Shown here: one piece after another, positions 3,115-44,315 of the stretch | Layout of the letters: each line of letters starts with the position of its first letter | Position numbering within the stretch: position 1 is the first letter of the stretch | Assembly (NCBI RefSeq): GCF_002906575.1 | Contig: NZ_CP026309.1 | Span: 1,798,001 to 1,862,000 of the forward strand | Source: Salinigranum rubrum | GTDB taxonomy: Archaea > Halobacteriota > Halobacteria > Halobacteriales > Haloferacaceae | DNA: 64,000 nt | Direction of reading: 5' to 3' | Translations under genes and position numbers: made by a program | Notes under the pieces: model-generated | Seen by the model: only the letters and a program-made list of their open reading frames with translations | Databases searched by the model: none | What the model was told of the DNA's origin: nothing

Positions 3115-5367
<2,253 letters not shown>

Positions 5368-13562: not shown

Positions 13563-14447
13563 CTACTCCGGCGTTCCGCCGTATCCGAACTCGCCGTACC
13601 CCTGTTCGCCGTAGTCGTCGTCGGAGACGGGCGTCGGCGTGGGAGTGGGAGTCGGCGTGGGCGTCGCAGTCGGTTCCGGCGTGGGGGTTGGGGTAGGAGT
13701 CGGCGTCGCGGTCGGTTCCGGCGTGGGCGTCGCTGTGGGTTTCGGGGTTGGGGTGGGCGTGGGGGTCGGTTCCGGAGTCGGTTCCGGCGTGGGGGTTGGG
13801 GTAGGAGTCGGCGTCGCGGTCGGTTCCGGAGTGGAAGTGGGAGTCGGAGTCGGCGTCGCCGGCCCTGTTCCGGACACAGAGAGTTCGTACCCCCCAGTCG
13901 GGTTGTCGCTGGTGAGGTGGACGAAGTACGTCCCGGTCCTCGGGACGGGGTCGAGACCGATGGACACGGGTTTCTTGTTCGGGACCTGCACCTCTTCGAG
14001 TTGCGTCCCGTCGGGACCGTACAGTCCGAAGCGCGCTTTCGCCCGGTTGCCATCCCGCACGAGCGTCAGGTCGAGCGACCCCTCCGCACTCAGTTCGACC
14101 GCGTACCAGTCGTTGTCGCCTGCGGCGAGCGTCCCTCTCACCGAGGAGCCCAGCGAGACGGCGTCGGCACTCGCCTGCGATCCGTTCGGTTCGGACTCTT
14201 GGACGACCGCTGCGGCCGCCGCGAACGACGAGCCGACCAGGGCGCTCGGGAGCGCTACCTGTCCGCGTCGCATCGGCGCCCCGCCGTAGCCGAACTCGTG
14301 CGAGCGAGTCTCAGATGTGGTTCCAGTGCAGCCAGCCAGCGCCCCGCCGGCGACGATGGTCGACCCGGTCAGTTTCAGGAACGTTCGTCGTCGAAACCCG
14401 TCAGTGTCGGGCGTTCGCTGGTCCTCCGCCGCTGTTTCGCGTGCCAT
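13563..14447 (-). CDS. Tat lipoprotein with PPC-like domain and Thr-Pro repeat stalk
   Basis: This is a 294-residue surface protein. The Tat signal [10 protein letters not shown] is followed by a lipobox-like GALAGC, so it is probably lipid-anchored outside the cell. HEFGYGGAP follows the anchor. Residues about 70-180 look like a bacterial pre-peptidase C-terminal (PPC)-type beta domain ([13 protein letters not shown] ... DNDWYAVEL ... [11 protein letters not shown]). Then about 90 residues of TPTPTPEP-type repeat form a stalk (13620-13860), and the C-terminus is [16 protein letters not shown]. The repeat DNA generates a long Val-Gly ORF on the other strand that is not a gene. Role unknown. 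Confidence 0.8.
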
Positions 14448-39588: not shown

Positions 39589-40764
39589 ATGACGGCAGGG
39601 GAGGCACGGCAGGCGTTCGAGGCGGCGTACGACCGGGAACCGACGGCGGTGGCGAGTGCGCCGGGGAGGGTGAACCTCGTCGGGGGCCATACCGACTACA
39701 ACGGGGGGCTCGTCCTCCCGATGGCCATCGACCGCCGAACCGCTGTGGCCGCCGCGCCGCGCGACGATGACCGATTCAGGCTGCGGTCGACCGACGTCGA
39801 GGGCAGGGTCGTCGTCGACGGCCTCCCCGACGAACCGCTCGGGAGCGAAGACGAGGCGTGGGCGAACTACCCGCTCGGCGTCCTCGTCGAACTCGCCAGG
39901 GAGGGCCTCTTCGAGTCGCGGGGACTCGACCTCCTCGTCGCGGGAGACGTTCCGCGCGGGGCCGGCCTCTCCTCGTCGGCGGCGCTCGAAGTGGCGACGG
40001 CGGCCGCGGCGTACGCCGTCGACTCCCCCACGCACGAGCTACCGAGACGCGCCCTGGCCGAGGCGGCCTGGCGCGCCGAGACGGGCTTCGTCGGCCTCGA
40101 CTGCGGGATTATGGACCAGTACGCGAGCGCCTGCTGTCGGACTGGCGAGGTACTCTTCCTCGACTGCCGCTCCCGCGAGACGCGTGGGGTCCGGTTCGGC
40201 GACAGGGAGTACAGGGTCGTCGTCGTCGACACGCGCGTCGAACACGAACTCGCCTCGTCGGCGTACAACGACCGGGTGCGCGAGTGCGCCGAGGCGGTCG
40301 AGCAGTTCGACGCCCTGCTCGGAGGCGTCGAGTCGCTCCGGGACGTCGACCGGGACGCGCTCGTCGCACACGCCGCCTCCCTCCCGGGCGTCCTCCGCCG
40401 ACGGACGCGCCACGTCGTCACCGAGAACGAGCGCGTGCGTGCGGCCGTCGACGCCCTCGAAGCCGAGGACGTGGGTGCCGTCGGCGACTGCATGTTCGAG
40501 TCGCACGCGAGTCTCCGCGACGACTACGAGGTGTCCTGTGTGGAACTCGATACGGTCGTGGAACTCGCGTGGGAAACTGCGGGCGTCGTCGGCGCGCGGA
40601 TGACCGGCGGCGGCTTCGGGGGAAGCGTCGTCGCCCTGGTCCGGAGCGATGCGGTCGAGGACTTCCGCGCTCACGTCGATACGGAGTACACAGAACGCGC
40701 GGGCGTCGACGTCGAACCCCGGACGTTCGTCTGTTCGCCGGCGGAGGGCGTTCGACTGGAGTGA
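39589..40764 (+). CDS. galK: galactokinase-like GHMP kinase
   Basis: This 391-residue GHMP kinase is closest to galactokinase. Motif 1 is APGRVNLVGGHTDYNGGLVLP, motif 2 is GAGLSSSAALEVA (ATP loop), the catalytic Asp is in GLDCGIMDQYAS, and motif 3 is GARMTGGGFGGS. In motif 1 the usual Glu of GEHTDYN is Gly, a residue that contacts the sugar in characterised enzymes, so substrate preference may differ. A gluconate/galactonate dehydratase gene lies 2.3 kb downstream beyond the KAP NTPase gene. Confidence 0.85.
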   Translation: MTAGEARQAFEAAYDREPTAVASAPGRVNLVGGHTDYNGGLVLPMAIDRRTAVAAAPRDDDRFRLRSTDVEGRVVVDGLPDEPLGSEDEAWANYPLGVLVELAREGLFESRGLDLLVAGDVPRGAGLSSSAALEVATAAAAYAVDSPTHELPRRALAEAAWRAETGFVGLDCGIMDQYASACCRTGEVLFLDCRSRETRGVRFGDREYRVVVVDTRVEHELASSAYNDRVRECAEAVEQFDALLGGVESLRDVDRDALVAHAASLPGVLRRRTRHVVTENERVRAAVDALEAEDVGAVGDCMFESHASLRDDYEVSCVELDTVVELAWETAGVVGARMTGGGFGGSVVALVRSDAVEDFRAHVDTEYTERAGVDVEPRTFVCSPAEGVRLE

Positions 40765-40836: not shown

Positions 40837-42828
40837 ATGGCAGAGCAATCTGGGTGGGAGGAGGAACCAAGCGCTCGAACGCCGGTGGGCGCCGCGTTCG
40901 GCGACAGACCGACCGCGGACGACGCGCTCGGGTTCGAGCCGTACGTCGAGGCGCTCGCGACGTTCCTCAGACAACGGGAGACGACACCGCCGCTCGCGGT
41001 TTCCGTCGAGGGGACGTGGGGCGCCGGCAAGTCGTCGTTCATGTCACAGCTCGAACATGAACTCCGCAGCGAGGGTCACTTCACGGTTCGGTTCAACCCC
41101 TGGCGACACGAGGGAGAGGACGCGCTGTGGGCGGCGTTCATGCTGGCCGTGCTGGACGGCCTCTCGAAGAAACTCGTGCCGCGGGACAGACGCCGGGCCC
41201 GTCTCAGGCTCGTTCTCGACCGTTTCGACAGACGCCGTGGTCGCGCTGCCGTCGCACGGACGGTGGGGACGACGCTGGCCGCCGTCCTCGTCGTGGTCGC
41301 CACGGCGGTCGTCGCGTCAGCCGCCGGATCGAGTTTCCTCGGGGGCGCCGACAGCACGGCAGTCGCTGCGACGTTCGGGCTCGGCGGCGGCGTCACGTCC
41401 TTCGTGGGCGTGTGGCTGTGGACCCGGCGGAACGTCGTCGAGCGGACCGAGCGCGAACTGGAGGCGTACGTCCGCGACCCCGAGTACGAGGGCCACGTCT
41501 CCTTCCTCGAGAACTTCCACGAGGACTTGGGTCGCGTCCTCGACGCGTACGTCGGCGACCACCGCGTGTTCGTGTTCATCGACGACCTCGACCGGTGTGA
41601 GGTGCCCCGGGCCGCCGAGTTGATGCAGTCGATCAACCTCATGCTCTCGGACGACCCTCGGCTCGTGTTCCTCCTCGGGATGGACCGAGAGAAGGTCGCC
41701 GCCGGCCTCGCGGCCAAGCACGAAGAGCTCCTCGACCACCTCAACGTCGAGTCGCGTCCGTCGTTCGGTCTCGACTACGGCTACGCGTTCATCGAGAAAT
41801 TCGTGCAGATTCCGTTCCTCATCCCGCGGCCCTCGCCCGACGACGTGGACCGGTTCGTGACCGAACTGATGGCGTTTCAGCGCGAGCACGGCGACTCGTT
41901 CAGCCCCGACGAGTTCATCGCACTGCGAGCGGCCGAGTACCCACAGCTCTCCCCGCAAAACCCACCTGAGCCCGCCGAGCCGTACACGCTGTGGGCACGG
42001 GACTGGACGGACGACCAGCTCAGAACGGCGGTCGCCTGGGCCGCGCCCGCGCTCGCGTACAACCCACGGCAGATAAAGAAGTTCATCAACCTCTACCGGC
42101 TCCGGGCGCTCTTAGCGCAGGAAGTCGAGGTGTTCGAGCGGACGGACCTGACGCTCGACCAACTCGGGAAGTTCGTCACCATCAGCCTCCGGTGGCCGCG
42201 GCTCCTCCCCGAACTCAACCGCGACCACGACCTGTTCGCTCGGCTCACCGCCGTCGCCCTGCGCGACCGGTTCCGCGAGGCGTGCTCGGAGTCCGCCCCG
42301 CCCGTCGCACCCGCGGTCGCTGCCCCCGACCCCGCCGGTGCGGCGGCGGACCGGACCGACGACGCGACACCCGATAGCGACACGTCCGAGTCGCGGACGG
42401 CCGGCACGGACGAACTCCCCGTCGTGATTCGGTCCGAACGCGACTGGGGGCTCTTCGCCGACCTCCTGCTCGCGGGGCTGTACGACGAGTCGCTGTCGAC
42501 CGCGGAGTTCGGCTCCGAACTGCTCGTCACGTACCCGGAGCTCACGACTGACGGGCTCGACGAGTTCTTCGAGGGCCGCTCGCTCGACGAACTGCTCTGG
42601 GAGACGGACGCGAACGTCGACGCCAGCCTCGCCCACGTCGACGTCGAATCCCTGCTCCAGATTTCGCCGCGTGCGGACGTCCCGACGGAGACGCTCGAAG
42701 AGGCACCGTACGCGCAGTCCGCGAAGTACGCCCCGTACGCGCAGTCCGCACAGCGCGATTCGAGCGCGTTCTCCGAGTTCCTCGACGAGCGTGACGGCGG
42801 AACGGGAGGAAGCGTCCCCGAGGACTGA
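40837..42828 (+). CDS. KAP-family membrane P-loop NTPase
   Basis: This 663-residue protein is read from MAEQSGWEEE at 40837; an in-frame ATG at 40795 adds 14 residues. Walker A is EGTWGAGKSS at about residues 59-67. Two hydrophobic helices (about 145-163 and 173-196) are inserted inside the NTPase domain, the defining KAP layout. Walker B is VFIDDLDRCE at about 245-254. NPRQIKKFINLYRLR is the late KAP motif. After about residue 480 comes a haloarchaea-specific acidic part ending with APYAQSAKY/APYAQSAQR. KAP proteins include the phage-exclusion protein PifA and the animal scaffold Kidins220. A defence or membrane-stress role is plausible. Confidence 0.85.
   Translation: MAEQSGWEEEPSARTPVGAAFGDRPTADDALGFEPYVEALATFLRQRETTPPLAVSVEGTWGAGKSSFMSQLEHELRSEGHFTVRFNPWRHEGEDALWAAFMLAVLDGLSKKLVPRDRRRARLRLVLDRFDRRRGRAAVARTVGTTLAAVLVVVATAVVASAAGSSFLGGADSTAVAATFGLGGGVTSFVGVWLWTRRNVVERTERELEAYVRDPEYEGHVSFLENFHEDLGRVLDAYVGDHRVFVFIDDLDRCEVPRAAELMQSINLMLSDDPRLVFLLGMDREKVAAGLAAKHEELLDHLNVESRPSFGLDYGYAFIEKFVQIPFLIPRPSPDDVDRFVTELMAFQREHGDSFSPDEFIALRAAEYPQLSPQNPPEPAEPYTLWARDWTDDQLRTAVAWAAPALAYNPRQIKKFINLYRLRALLAQEVEVFERTDLTLDQLGKFVTISLRWPRLLPELNRDHDLFARLTAVALRDRFREACSESAPPVAPAVAAPDPAGAAADRTDDATPDSDTSESRTAGTDELPVVIRSERDWGLFADLLLAGLYDESLSTAEFGSELLVTYPELTTDGLDEFFEGRSLDELLWETDANVDASLAHVDVESLLQISPRADVPTETLEEAPYAQSAKYAPYAQSAQRDSSAFSEFLDERDGGTGGSVPED
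42706..42749 (+). repeat. 27-base-period repeat in KAP gene tail
   Basis: CCGTACGCGCAGTCCGC occurs exactly at 42706-42722 and 42733-42749. It encodes the twice-occurring PYAQSA of the C-terminus. Confidence 0.8.
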
Positions 42829-42957
42829 CTGAGAGACTGGTCTGCGCGCCGAACCCGTCGCTAGTCTTCAGAGCCACCGCCGCGGAGCAGAGGACGTACT
42901 CTCCTCCCGTGACAAGCGATGCACGCGCGAGGTCTTACGAGGGGACGGTGTGGGGCT

Positions 42958-43076: not shown

Positions 43077-44315
43077 TCACTCCTCGTCGAACAGTTCCTC
43101 GCCCTTCACCATGTGCTCTGCGACGGCGTCCATGTCGAGAGTCACACCCAGTCCCGGCTTCTCGGGGATGGTGATGTAGCCGTCCTCGATGACCGTCTCC
43201 TCGACGAGGTCACCCCACCAGCCGAGTTCGTACGAGTGGTACTCCACGGCCAGCGAGTTCGGGATGGCCGCACCGACCTGTGCGGAGGCCATCGTCGCCA
43301 CGGGGGAGGAGACGTTGTGCATCGCGACCGGGATGTAGTACTGGTTGGCGACGTCGGCTATCTTCCGCGTCTCTCTCATGCCGCCGACCTTGGGCAGGTC
43401 GGGCGCGATGATGTCGACCGCCTGGTTCTCGATGAGGCGGCGTTCCTCGGTGACTCTGTACCGGTTCTCGCCCACGGTGATGGGCGTCGTCGTGGACTTC
43501 GTGACCTCCTCCTGGACGTCGAGGTTCTCCGGCGGGACGGGGTCTTCGAGCCACCAGACGTCGTACTCCTCGATGGCGGCGGCGAGGCGCTTGGCCGACC
43601 CGCCCGAGAACGTCCAGTGGCAGTCGAAGGCGACGTCCGCGCGGTCCTTCACGCGCTCTGTGACCTTCTCGACGATCTCGGCCTTGTGGCGGATTTCGCC
43701 CGGTCGGAGGTGGCGGTTCGCGCGGTCCTTCTCCAGTCCGGAGGGGACGTCGAGGTCGAACTTCAGCGCGTCGTAGCCCAGGTCCTCGACGACGCGTTCG
43801 GCCTCGTCGGCGCAGGCGTCGGGGTCGGCCTCGTCTTCCGTGTGACAGTCACAGTAGACGCGCACCCGGTCGCGGTACTTCCCGCCCAGAAGCTGGTAGG
43901 CGGGAACGTCGAGTATCTTGCCCGCGAGGTCGTGGAGAGCGATTTCGATGCCCGCGATGGCGGTGATCGTGACGCCCTCGACGCTGCCCTCCCCGGACAT
44001 CTTCTGGACGAGATGCTCGTAGAGGCGGTCGATGTCGAGGGGGTTCTCGCCGATTATGAAGGGAGCCATCCGCTCGATGAGTTCCGGCGCGCCGGCGCCC
44101 CAGTACGCCTCGCCGGTGCCGACGATGCCGGCGTCCGTGTACACCCTGACCAGCGTCCACGGGAAGTTGCCGTCGACCATCGTCGTCTGGACGTCCGTGA
44201 TTTCGACGTCGCGGCCGCCGCCGCGCTTCGCCGTGACGCCCATCGTCTCCTTCGAGAGCTCCCGCATCGTGTACTCCGCGTTCGGATCGTGCAGATCCGA
44301 GTAGTCGATTCCCAT
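43077..44315 (-). CDS. gnaD: gluconate/galactonate dehydratase, enolase superfamily
   Basis: This 412-residue mandelate-racemase-type dehydratase starts at ATG 44315 (MGIDYSDLHDPNAEYTMREL), as in haloarchaeal gluconate dehydratases. Active-site landmarks are ALKFDLDVP (Lys region), VAFDCHW (Asp ligand), WWLEDPVPPEN (Glu ligand), TVGENRY (Glu ligand) and PVAMHNVSSP (His base). It should convert gluconate and/or galactonate to the 2-keto-3-deoxy acid in the semi-phosphorylative Entner-Doudoroff route. Proximity to galK hints at sugar catabolism, but specificity is not readable. Confidence 0.87.
   Translation of the reverse strand: MGIDYSDLHDPNAEYTMRELSKETMGVTAKRGGGRDVEITDVQTTMVDGNFPWTLVRVYTDAGIVGTGEAYWGAGAPELIERMAPFIIGENPLDIDRLYEHLVQKMSGEGSVEGVTITAIAGIEIALHDLAGKILDVPAYQLLGGKYRDRVRVYCDCHTEDEADPDACADEAERVVEDLGYDALKFDLDVPSGLEKDRANRHLRPGEIRHKAEIVEKVTERVKDRADVAFDCHWTFSGGSAKRLAAAIEEYDVWWLEDPVPPENLDVQEEVTKSTTTPITVGENRYRVTEERRLIENQAVDIIAPDLPKVGGMRETRKIADVANQYYIPVAMHNVSSPVATMASAQVGAAIPNSLAVEYHSYELGWWGDLVEETVIEDGYITIPEKPGLGVTLDMDAVAEHMVKGEELFDEE

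What the first reader, a model, noticed from the sequence alone, without database searches (positions are those of the whole stretch)
40837..42828. Membrane KAP NTPase with a haloarchaeal C-terminal extension and PYAQSA repeat
KAP NTPases are rare in archaea and include a phage-exclusion protein. This one is a single gene between sugar-metabolism genes, with intact Walker A and B, the KAP membrane insertion, about 180 extra residues and an exact 27-base-period duplication at the end. It is a good candidate for a one-gene antiviral or membrane-integrity system that has not been described in haloarchaea.
Basis: partly seen in the sequence, partly recalled or inferred. Interest (0 to 1): 0.7.

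Follow-up and report, generated by a model that had tools for sequence, protein, structure and literature searches.

The report
Patchy membrane KAP ATPase, likely antiviral
A salt-loving archaeon carries a single, recently acquired gene for a membrane-anchored ATP-driven switch protein whose relatives are built like microbial immune receptors, so it is a plausible but untested antiviral gene of a kind already known in bacteria.

Summary
The gene is real. Window 40837-42828(+) encodes a 663-aa KAP-family NTPase (PF07693, E 7.6e-33) with intact Walker A and B and two hydrophobic segments inside the NTPase domain. Two details were off. The C-terminal 'haloarchaeal extension' is mostly a helical region shared with bacterial relatives; only an insert and the last ~50 disordered residues are private. 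The repeat is a 17-bp exact copy at 27-bp spacing. The gene is accessory: its subfamily occurs in 7 of 391 haloarchaeal genomes. In two sister Salinigranum genomes the same galK-dehydratase interval holds an acetamidase-like gene plus a small gene; the window keeps only a short acetamidase remnant beside the KAP gene, so the KAP gene replaced it. Relatives carry interchangeable modules (TIR, TPR, FGE-sulfatase, GUN4, a second NTPase), the layout of STAND-like immune receptors, and the model's best PDB match is RdrA of RADAR. Most likely it is a one-gene membrane KAP switch working like bacterial Tmn, without a recognisable sensor or effector domain. No virus phenotype is known and no defence system was recognised in the window. 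New member of a known kind. A side finding may matter more: in three haloarchaeal genera a relative is paired with an extra FtsZ.

The parts
40837..42828 (+). KAP-family P-loop NTPase gene, 663 aa
   Evidence: PF07693 E 7.6e-33; translation
41011..41037 (+). Walker A, residues 59-67 GTWGAGKSS
   Evidence: sequence; G59/G62/G64/K65 invariant in 46 aligned proteins
41272..41328 (+). hydrophobic (predicted transmembrane) segment 1, residues 146-164, within the NTPase domain
   Evidence: hydropathy 2.25; helix 132-162 in model
41362..41418 (+). hydrophobic (predicted transmembrane) segment 2, residues 176-194
   Evidence: hydropathy 1.5; helix 173-213 in model
41566..41595 (+). Walker B and following DR, residues 244-253 VFVFIDDLDR
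   Evidence: D249/D250/D252/R253 invariant in 46 aligned proteins
41683..41688 (+). invariant D283-R284, candidate arginine finger/sensor
   Evidence: 46 of 46; the role is inferred
42061..42084 (+). NPRxxKxF motif, residues 409-416, in the helical part after the P-loop core
   Evidence: N409 and R411 invariant
42295..42426 (+). low-confidence Ala/Asp-rich insert, residues ~487-530, private to this protein
   Evidence: pLDDT mostly under 60, 500-523 under 50; absent from or unlike relatives
42652..42672 (+). subfamily motif LLxxSPR, residues 606-612, after which relatives attach TPR or other modules
   Evidence: P611 in 41 of 46; alignment with S. salinum paralogues, whose TPRs follow
42673..42825 (+). 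short disordered tail where S. salinum relatives carry TPR arrays
   Evidence: pLDDT under 50 over most of it; alignment
42706..42749 (+). 17-bp exact direct repeat at 27-bp spacing (PYAQSAKYA / PYAQSAQ)
42846..42928 (-). remnant of the acetamidase-like gene that occupies this site in two sister genomes
   Evidence: DNA alignment to L116 and L117 beats 2000 of 2000 shuffles; peptide ARASLVTGGEYVLCSAAVALKTSD
39589..40764 (+). galK-like flanking gene, conserved at this site in two sister genomes
43080..44303 (-). sugar-acid dehydratase-like flanking gene, conserved in sister genomes

Best explanation
It is a horizontally moving, single-gene, membrane-anchored KAP NTPase of an immune-receptor-like (STAND-like) subfamily. 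In the proposed mechanism the P-loop domain is a nucleotide-controlled switch tethered to the membrane by two helices inserted in the NTPase domain. Virus infection or membrane stress triggers ATP-dependent assembly into a ring-like oligomer, and the membrane segments, or a host partner, then stop virus production or the infected cell, working like bacterial Tmn (whose own mechanism is unknown). Shown here: KAP domain, intact motifs, hydrophobic insert, patchy distribution, gene replacement at the site, modular relatives, fold similarity to RdrA. Inferred: ATPase activity, membrane insertion, oligomerisation, trigger, output step and antiviral effect. The protein lacks the TPR array, TIR and other modules of its relatives, so sensing and output must come from the core, the membrane part or a partner.
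For: Accessory gene: 7 of 391 haloarchaea have the subfamily; in its genus 2 of 4 genomes have a relative. Replacement of an acetamidase-like gene, with a remnant left behind and no close copy of that gene elsewhere in the genome. Relatives carry TIR, TPR arrays, a second STAND NTPase, FGE-sulfatase (5 of 46) and GUN4 (15 of 46). The literature places KAP ATPases as a stand-in for STAND NTPases in predicted conflict systems (PMC8195603) and in hypermutated antigen-sensor proteins (PMC10907252). All 46 aligned proteins match PADLOC models of QatA, PifA and PDC-S20. Best PDB structural match is RdrA of RADAR, Z 16.9 over 350 residues, then ORC/Cdc6, BrxC and plant NLR NB-ARC. One relative sits in a restriction/defence island. 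Tmn, a KAP NTPase with two transmembrane domains, is a proven anti-phage protein (PMC11846954).
Against: No phenotype. Of 49 window genes scanned, PADLOC hits at 1e-10 are IetA, TRIP13 and mad2 models, probably one ordinary AAA ATPase. No relative in the phage collection or IMG/VR at the sensitivity used. The two S. salinum paralogues also lie among ordinary genes. Only one of eight haloarchaeal loci is clearly a defence island, and no enrichment test was done. The protein lacks any recognisable sensor or effector domain. QatA equivalog score 104.7 against a cut-off of 600. KAP proteins also include non-immune members such as eukaryotic Kidins220 (own knowledge).
Confidence: 0.55

Rival explanations
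1. A truncated, decaying immune receptor: the lineage once had the TPR array seen in Salinigranum salinum relatives and lost it, leaving a core with a short repetitive tail and little or no function.
For: Closest relatives L034 and L047 continue into long TPR arrays where this protein ends in a disordered, internally repeated tail. End branch of 0.67 changes per column.
Against: The frame is intact and all catalytic residues are kept. Short members of 566-614 aa also exist in bacteria. No TPR remnant was seen after the stop; an acetamidase remnant is there.
Confidence: 0.2
2. A housekeeping or metabolic accessory protein: a membrane ATPase co-expressed with galK that serves sugar uptake or membrane integrity.
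For: It lies 72 bp downstream of galK on the same strand, in a stretch rich in sugar genes.
Against: Two sister genomes keep galK and the dehydratase but carry an acetamidase-like gene instead, so the linkage is recent. Relatives sit beside unrelated genes.
Confidence: 0.12
3. An NTPase subunit of a multi-gene defence system (QatA-like) whose partners are encoded elsewhere in the genome.
For: NCBIfam QatA matches residues 23-447 at E 5e-30. KAP relatives in three haloarchaea have an adjacent FtsZ as possible partner.
Against: Score 104.7 bits against the 600-bit cut-off. The flanking genes are galK and a dehydratase, not QatB, QatC or QatD.
Confidence: 0.13

Closest known systems
Tmn (bacterial single-gene KAP NTPase with two transmembrane domains, anti-phage)
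   Same: KAP family, two hydrophobic segments in the NTPase domain, one gene
   Different: No Tmn sequence or model was on hand, so homology beyond KAP was not tested; antiviral action is shown for Tmn only
PifA / QatA (KAP proteins of F-plasmid phage exclusion and of qatABCD)
   Same: KAP core; PADLOC PifA E 8e-24 and QatA E 5e-25, matching about 120 N-terminal residues best
   Different: QatA equivalog 104.7 bits against cut-off 600; no qatBCD genes beside it
KAP/STAND conflict proteins with TIR, TPR, FGE-sulfatase or GUN4 modules (predicted, many in cyanobacteria)
   Same: Same subfamily by sequence, about 28-41% identity over the core, same LLxxSPR end of core
   Different: This protein has none of those modules
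RdrA of RADAR
   Same: Closest solved fold, Z 16.9, rmsd 5.7, over 350 aligned residues
   Different: 12-15% identity, no adjacent RdrB deaminase; not filed here as the same family

Membership tests
KAP NTPase (PF07693) | P-loop domain above the curated cut-off with Walker A and B | tested here: met
   114.5 bits against cut-off 20; motifs intact
KAP NTPase (PF07693) | transmembrane segments inserted in the NTPase domain | tested here: met
   two hydrophobic segments between Walker A and B, 146-164 and 176-194; prediction only
Tmn | KAP NTPase, single gene, two transmembrane segments | tested here: met
   definition from PMC11846954
Tmn | sequence match to the Tmn family | not tested
   no Tmn sequence used; the PADLOC copy gave no hit of that name
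Tmn | inhibits virus propagation | not testable with these tools
   needs virus challenge
QatA / qatABCD | QatA equivalog score over 600 bits | tested here: not met
   104.7 bits
QatA / qatABCD | operon with qatB, qatC, qatD | tested here: not met
   flanked by galK and a dehydratase on the other strand
PifA | PifA profile over most of its length | tested here: inconclusive
   E 8.2e-24 but the best stretch covers 128 of 720 profile positions; no curated cut-off
STAND-like immune receptor | central NTPase plus sensor repeats and/or effector domain in one chain | tested here: not met
   relatives have them; this protein matched only KAP and related P-loop families
RADAR RdrA | same fold and adjacent rdrB adenosine deaminase | tested here: inconclusive
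   fold similar, Z 16.9; flanking genes are not a deaminase; sequence-family membership not tested

The most novel reading that the evidence does not exclude
Haloarchaea carry an undescribed set of modular KAP immune receptors that swap sensing parts: TPR arrays in S. salinum, a second STAND NTPase plus TPR in Natrinema, a flavodoxin-like domain with a dedicated extra FtsZ as bait in Haloferax, Halolamina and Halorubrum, and this one-gene minimal form. The FtsZ copy would be a decoy for viral inhibitors of cell division, guarded by the KAP switch.
Probability: 0.25. Interest if true: 0.7.

Novelty: new member of a known kind. Interest (0 to 1): 0.42.

Why it matters
Archaeal antiviral systems are poorly characterised (PMC12988326). 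If true, this subfamily brings KAP-based, receptor-like immunity to haloarchaea, some of which are genetically tractable and have laboratory viruses. It also gives a compact core in which the role of the membrane insert can be tested without sensor repeats.

Tried and rejected
Relatives in phage records: none. IMG/VR with single protein and with alignment: pattern matches, none confirmed. Sequence match to solved structures: none. PADLOC scan of 49 window genes: only IetA/TRIP13/mad2 models, taken as an ordinary AAA ATPase near 3115-5313, not followed up. The idea that the C-terminal extension is haloarchaea-specific was rejected. The idea that galK linkage is meaningful was rejected by the sister genomes. 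The original KAP family paper was not held. A first tree attempt failed on a thread setting and was redone. The flavodoxin-like model of the relatives' C-terminal domain matched receiver domains and dehydroquinases about equally (Z 9-10), so no specific function was assigned. A paper search for KAP with FtsZ, haloarchaea and defence gave nothing.

Full report
Observation. The frame at 40837-42828(+) translates to 663 residues without a stop and matches Pfam KAP_NTPase over residues 33-422 at E 7.6e-33. Walker A and Walker B are intact, and their key residues are invariant across 46 aligned proteins. Two hydrophobic stretches lie between them. The AlphaFold model is confident over most of the core (mean pLDDT 78) and disordered in residues 1-18, 500-523, 614-645 and 652-663. 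The repeat is 17 bp exact at 27-bp spacing.

Site history. The window belongs to the genus of Salinigranum: genome G392 of the same genus has contigs of the same lengths as Salinigranum salinum YJ-50-S2. In two other genomes of the genus, G349 and G391, galK and the dehydratase flank an acetamidase-like gene (name by my reading of the sequence) and a small gene without a Pfam match. In the window the interval instead holds the KAP gene and, right after it, a short stretch that aligns with the 3' part of the acetamidase gene in the same orientation; none of 2000 shuffles scored as high against either sister. No close copy of that gene exists elsewhere in the genome. The simplest reading is that the KAP gene came in and removed most of the two genes. 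G392 has no galK match and could not be compared at this point.

Distribution. Of 391 genomes of the class, 10 match the protein at 1e-10 and 7 match the subfamily profile at 1e-30; G392 adds two more copies. PF07693 as a whole matches 160 of 391, mostly just at the cut-off. In the genome collection the relatives are haloarchaeal and bacterial, with many in cyanobacteria. In a quick tree the archaeal rows lie together (support 87) and the query joins the two S. salinum copies (support 92), while two of the three other genomes of its genus lack a relative.

Architecture of relatives. S. salinum copies continue into TPR arrays; Natrinema versiforme has a second STAND-type NTPase and TPRs; an Omnitrophota protein has an N-terminal TIR and a C-terminal FGE-sulfatase domain. 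Of 46 aligned proteins, 15 carry GUN4 and 5 FGE-sulfatase. The haloarchaeal group of Haloferax elongans, Halolamina rubra, Halorubrum salinum and Halorubrum lipolyticum ends in a domain modelled as a five-strand flavodoxin-like fold. The window protein aligns with S. salinum up to the LLxxSPR motif and then ends in its own short tail. Published work lists KAP ATPases as replacing STAND NTPases in predicted conflict systems (PMC8195603) and among DGR-diversified sensors with C-type lectin domains (PMC10907252), and treats GUN4 and FGE-type domains as parts of such systems (PMC7159879).

Fold. Foldseek's best PDB matches are RdrA chains at E about 1e-3. VIA-align gives Z 16.9 over 350 residues for RdrA, about 3 above archaeal ORC/Cdc6, with BrxC and NLR NB-ARC domains further down. 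This fits an oligomerising AAA+/STAND switch; it does not show function.

Neighbours. Halorubrum lipolyticum's relative is divergent from a HATPase_c_3 protein, followed by an N6 methylase, a small protein 42% identical to the small gene at the window's site in a sister genome, and a type IV restriction-like enzyme. In Haloferax elongans, Halolamina rubra and Halorubrum salinum an FtsZ gene lies directly upstream on the same strand. In Haloferax elongans it is an extra copy, 81% identical to another FtsZ on a different contig; Halorubrum salinum and Halolamina rubra likewise hold another FtsZ elsewhere, 81% and 77% identical to the Haloferax paired copy. The Halolamina paired copy is split in two frames. 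The other relatives sit among ordinary genes as far as read by eye.

Judgement. The defence reading is favoured by patchiness, replacement, modular kin, fold and published KAP precedents (Tmn, PMC11846954; QatA, PMC13279940). It is weakened by the lack of any recognisable effector or sensor, of defence neighbours and of any phenotype. I put it at 0.55.

Noticed in passing
L033 8619-12004; L082 8777-12028; L038 8632-11995: An extra FtsZ gene lies directly upstream of the KAP relative in three haloarchaeal genera (in Haloferax elongans 81% identical to another FtsZ of the same genome); the Halolamina copy is split. Possible guarded decoy.
   Followed up: partly
L036 3133-11989: Halorubrum lipolyticum KAP relative in a restriction/defence island: type IV enzyme-like, small protein, N6 methylase, HATPase_c_3 protein.
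   Followed up: partly
L116 6878-7471; L036 4167-4775: A ~200-aa protein without a Pfam match, 42% identical between the sister Salinigranum site and the H. lipolyticum defence island; nuclease-like by eye only (not tested).
   Followed up: partly
window 42846-42928 (-): Remnant of an acetamidase-like gene that is intact in two sister genomes.
   Followed up: yes
L037 1-2793 and L038 9941-11995: Halorubrum salinum has identical KAP genes and following genes near the ends of two scaffolds; real duplication or assembly overlap.
   Followed up: no
L033 11474-12001: C-terminal domain of the Haloferax/Halolamina/Halorubrum relatives models as a flavodoxin-like fold, closest to receiver domains (Z about 10).
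   Followed up: partly
L022 9219-11222: KAP relative of G207 ends in what look like two copies of a Gins51_C-like segment.
   Followed up: no
L026 (G000:C1:4222517-4223038): A ~680-aa frame just over the KAP cut-off (20.5 bits), with similar marginal hits in many haloarchaea, probably a different P-loop family.
   Followed up: no
window 13613-13859: Dense imperfect tandem repeats of GTCGGC-type units.
   Followed up: no
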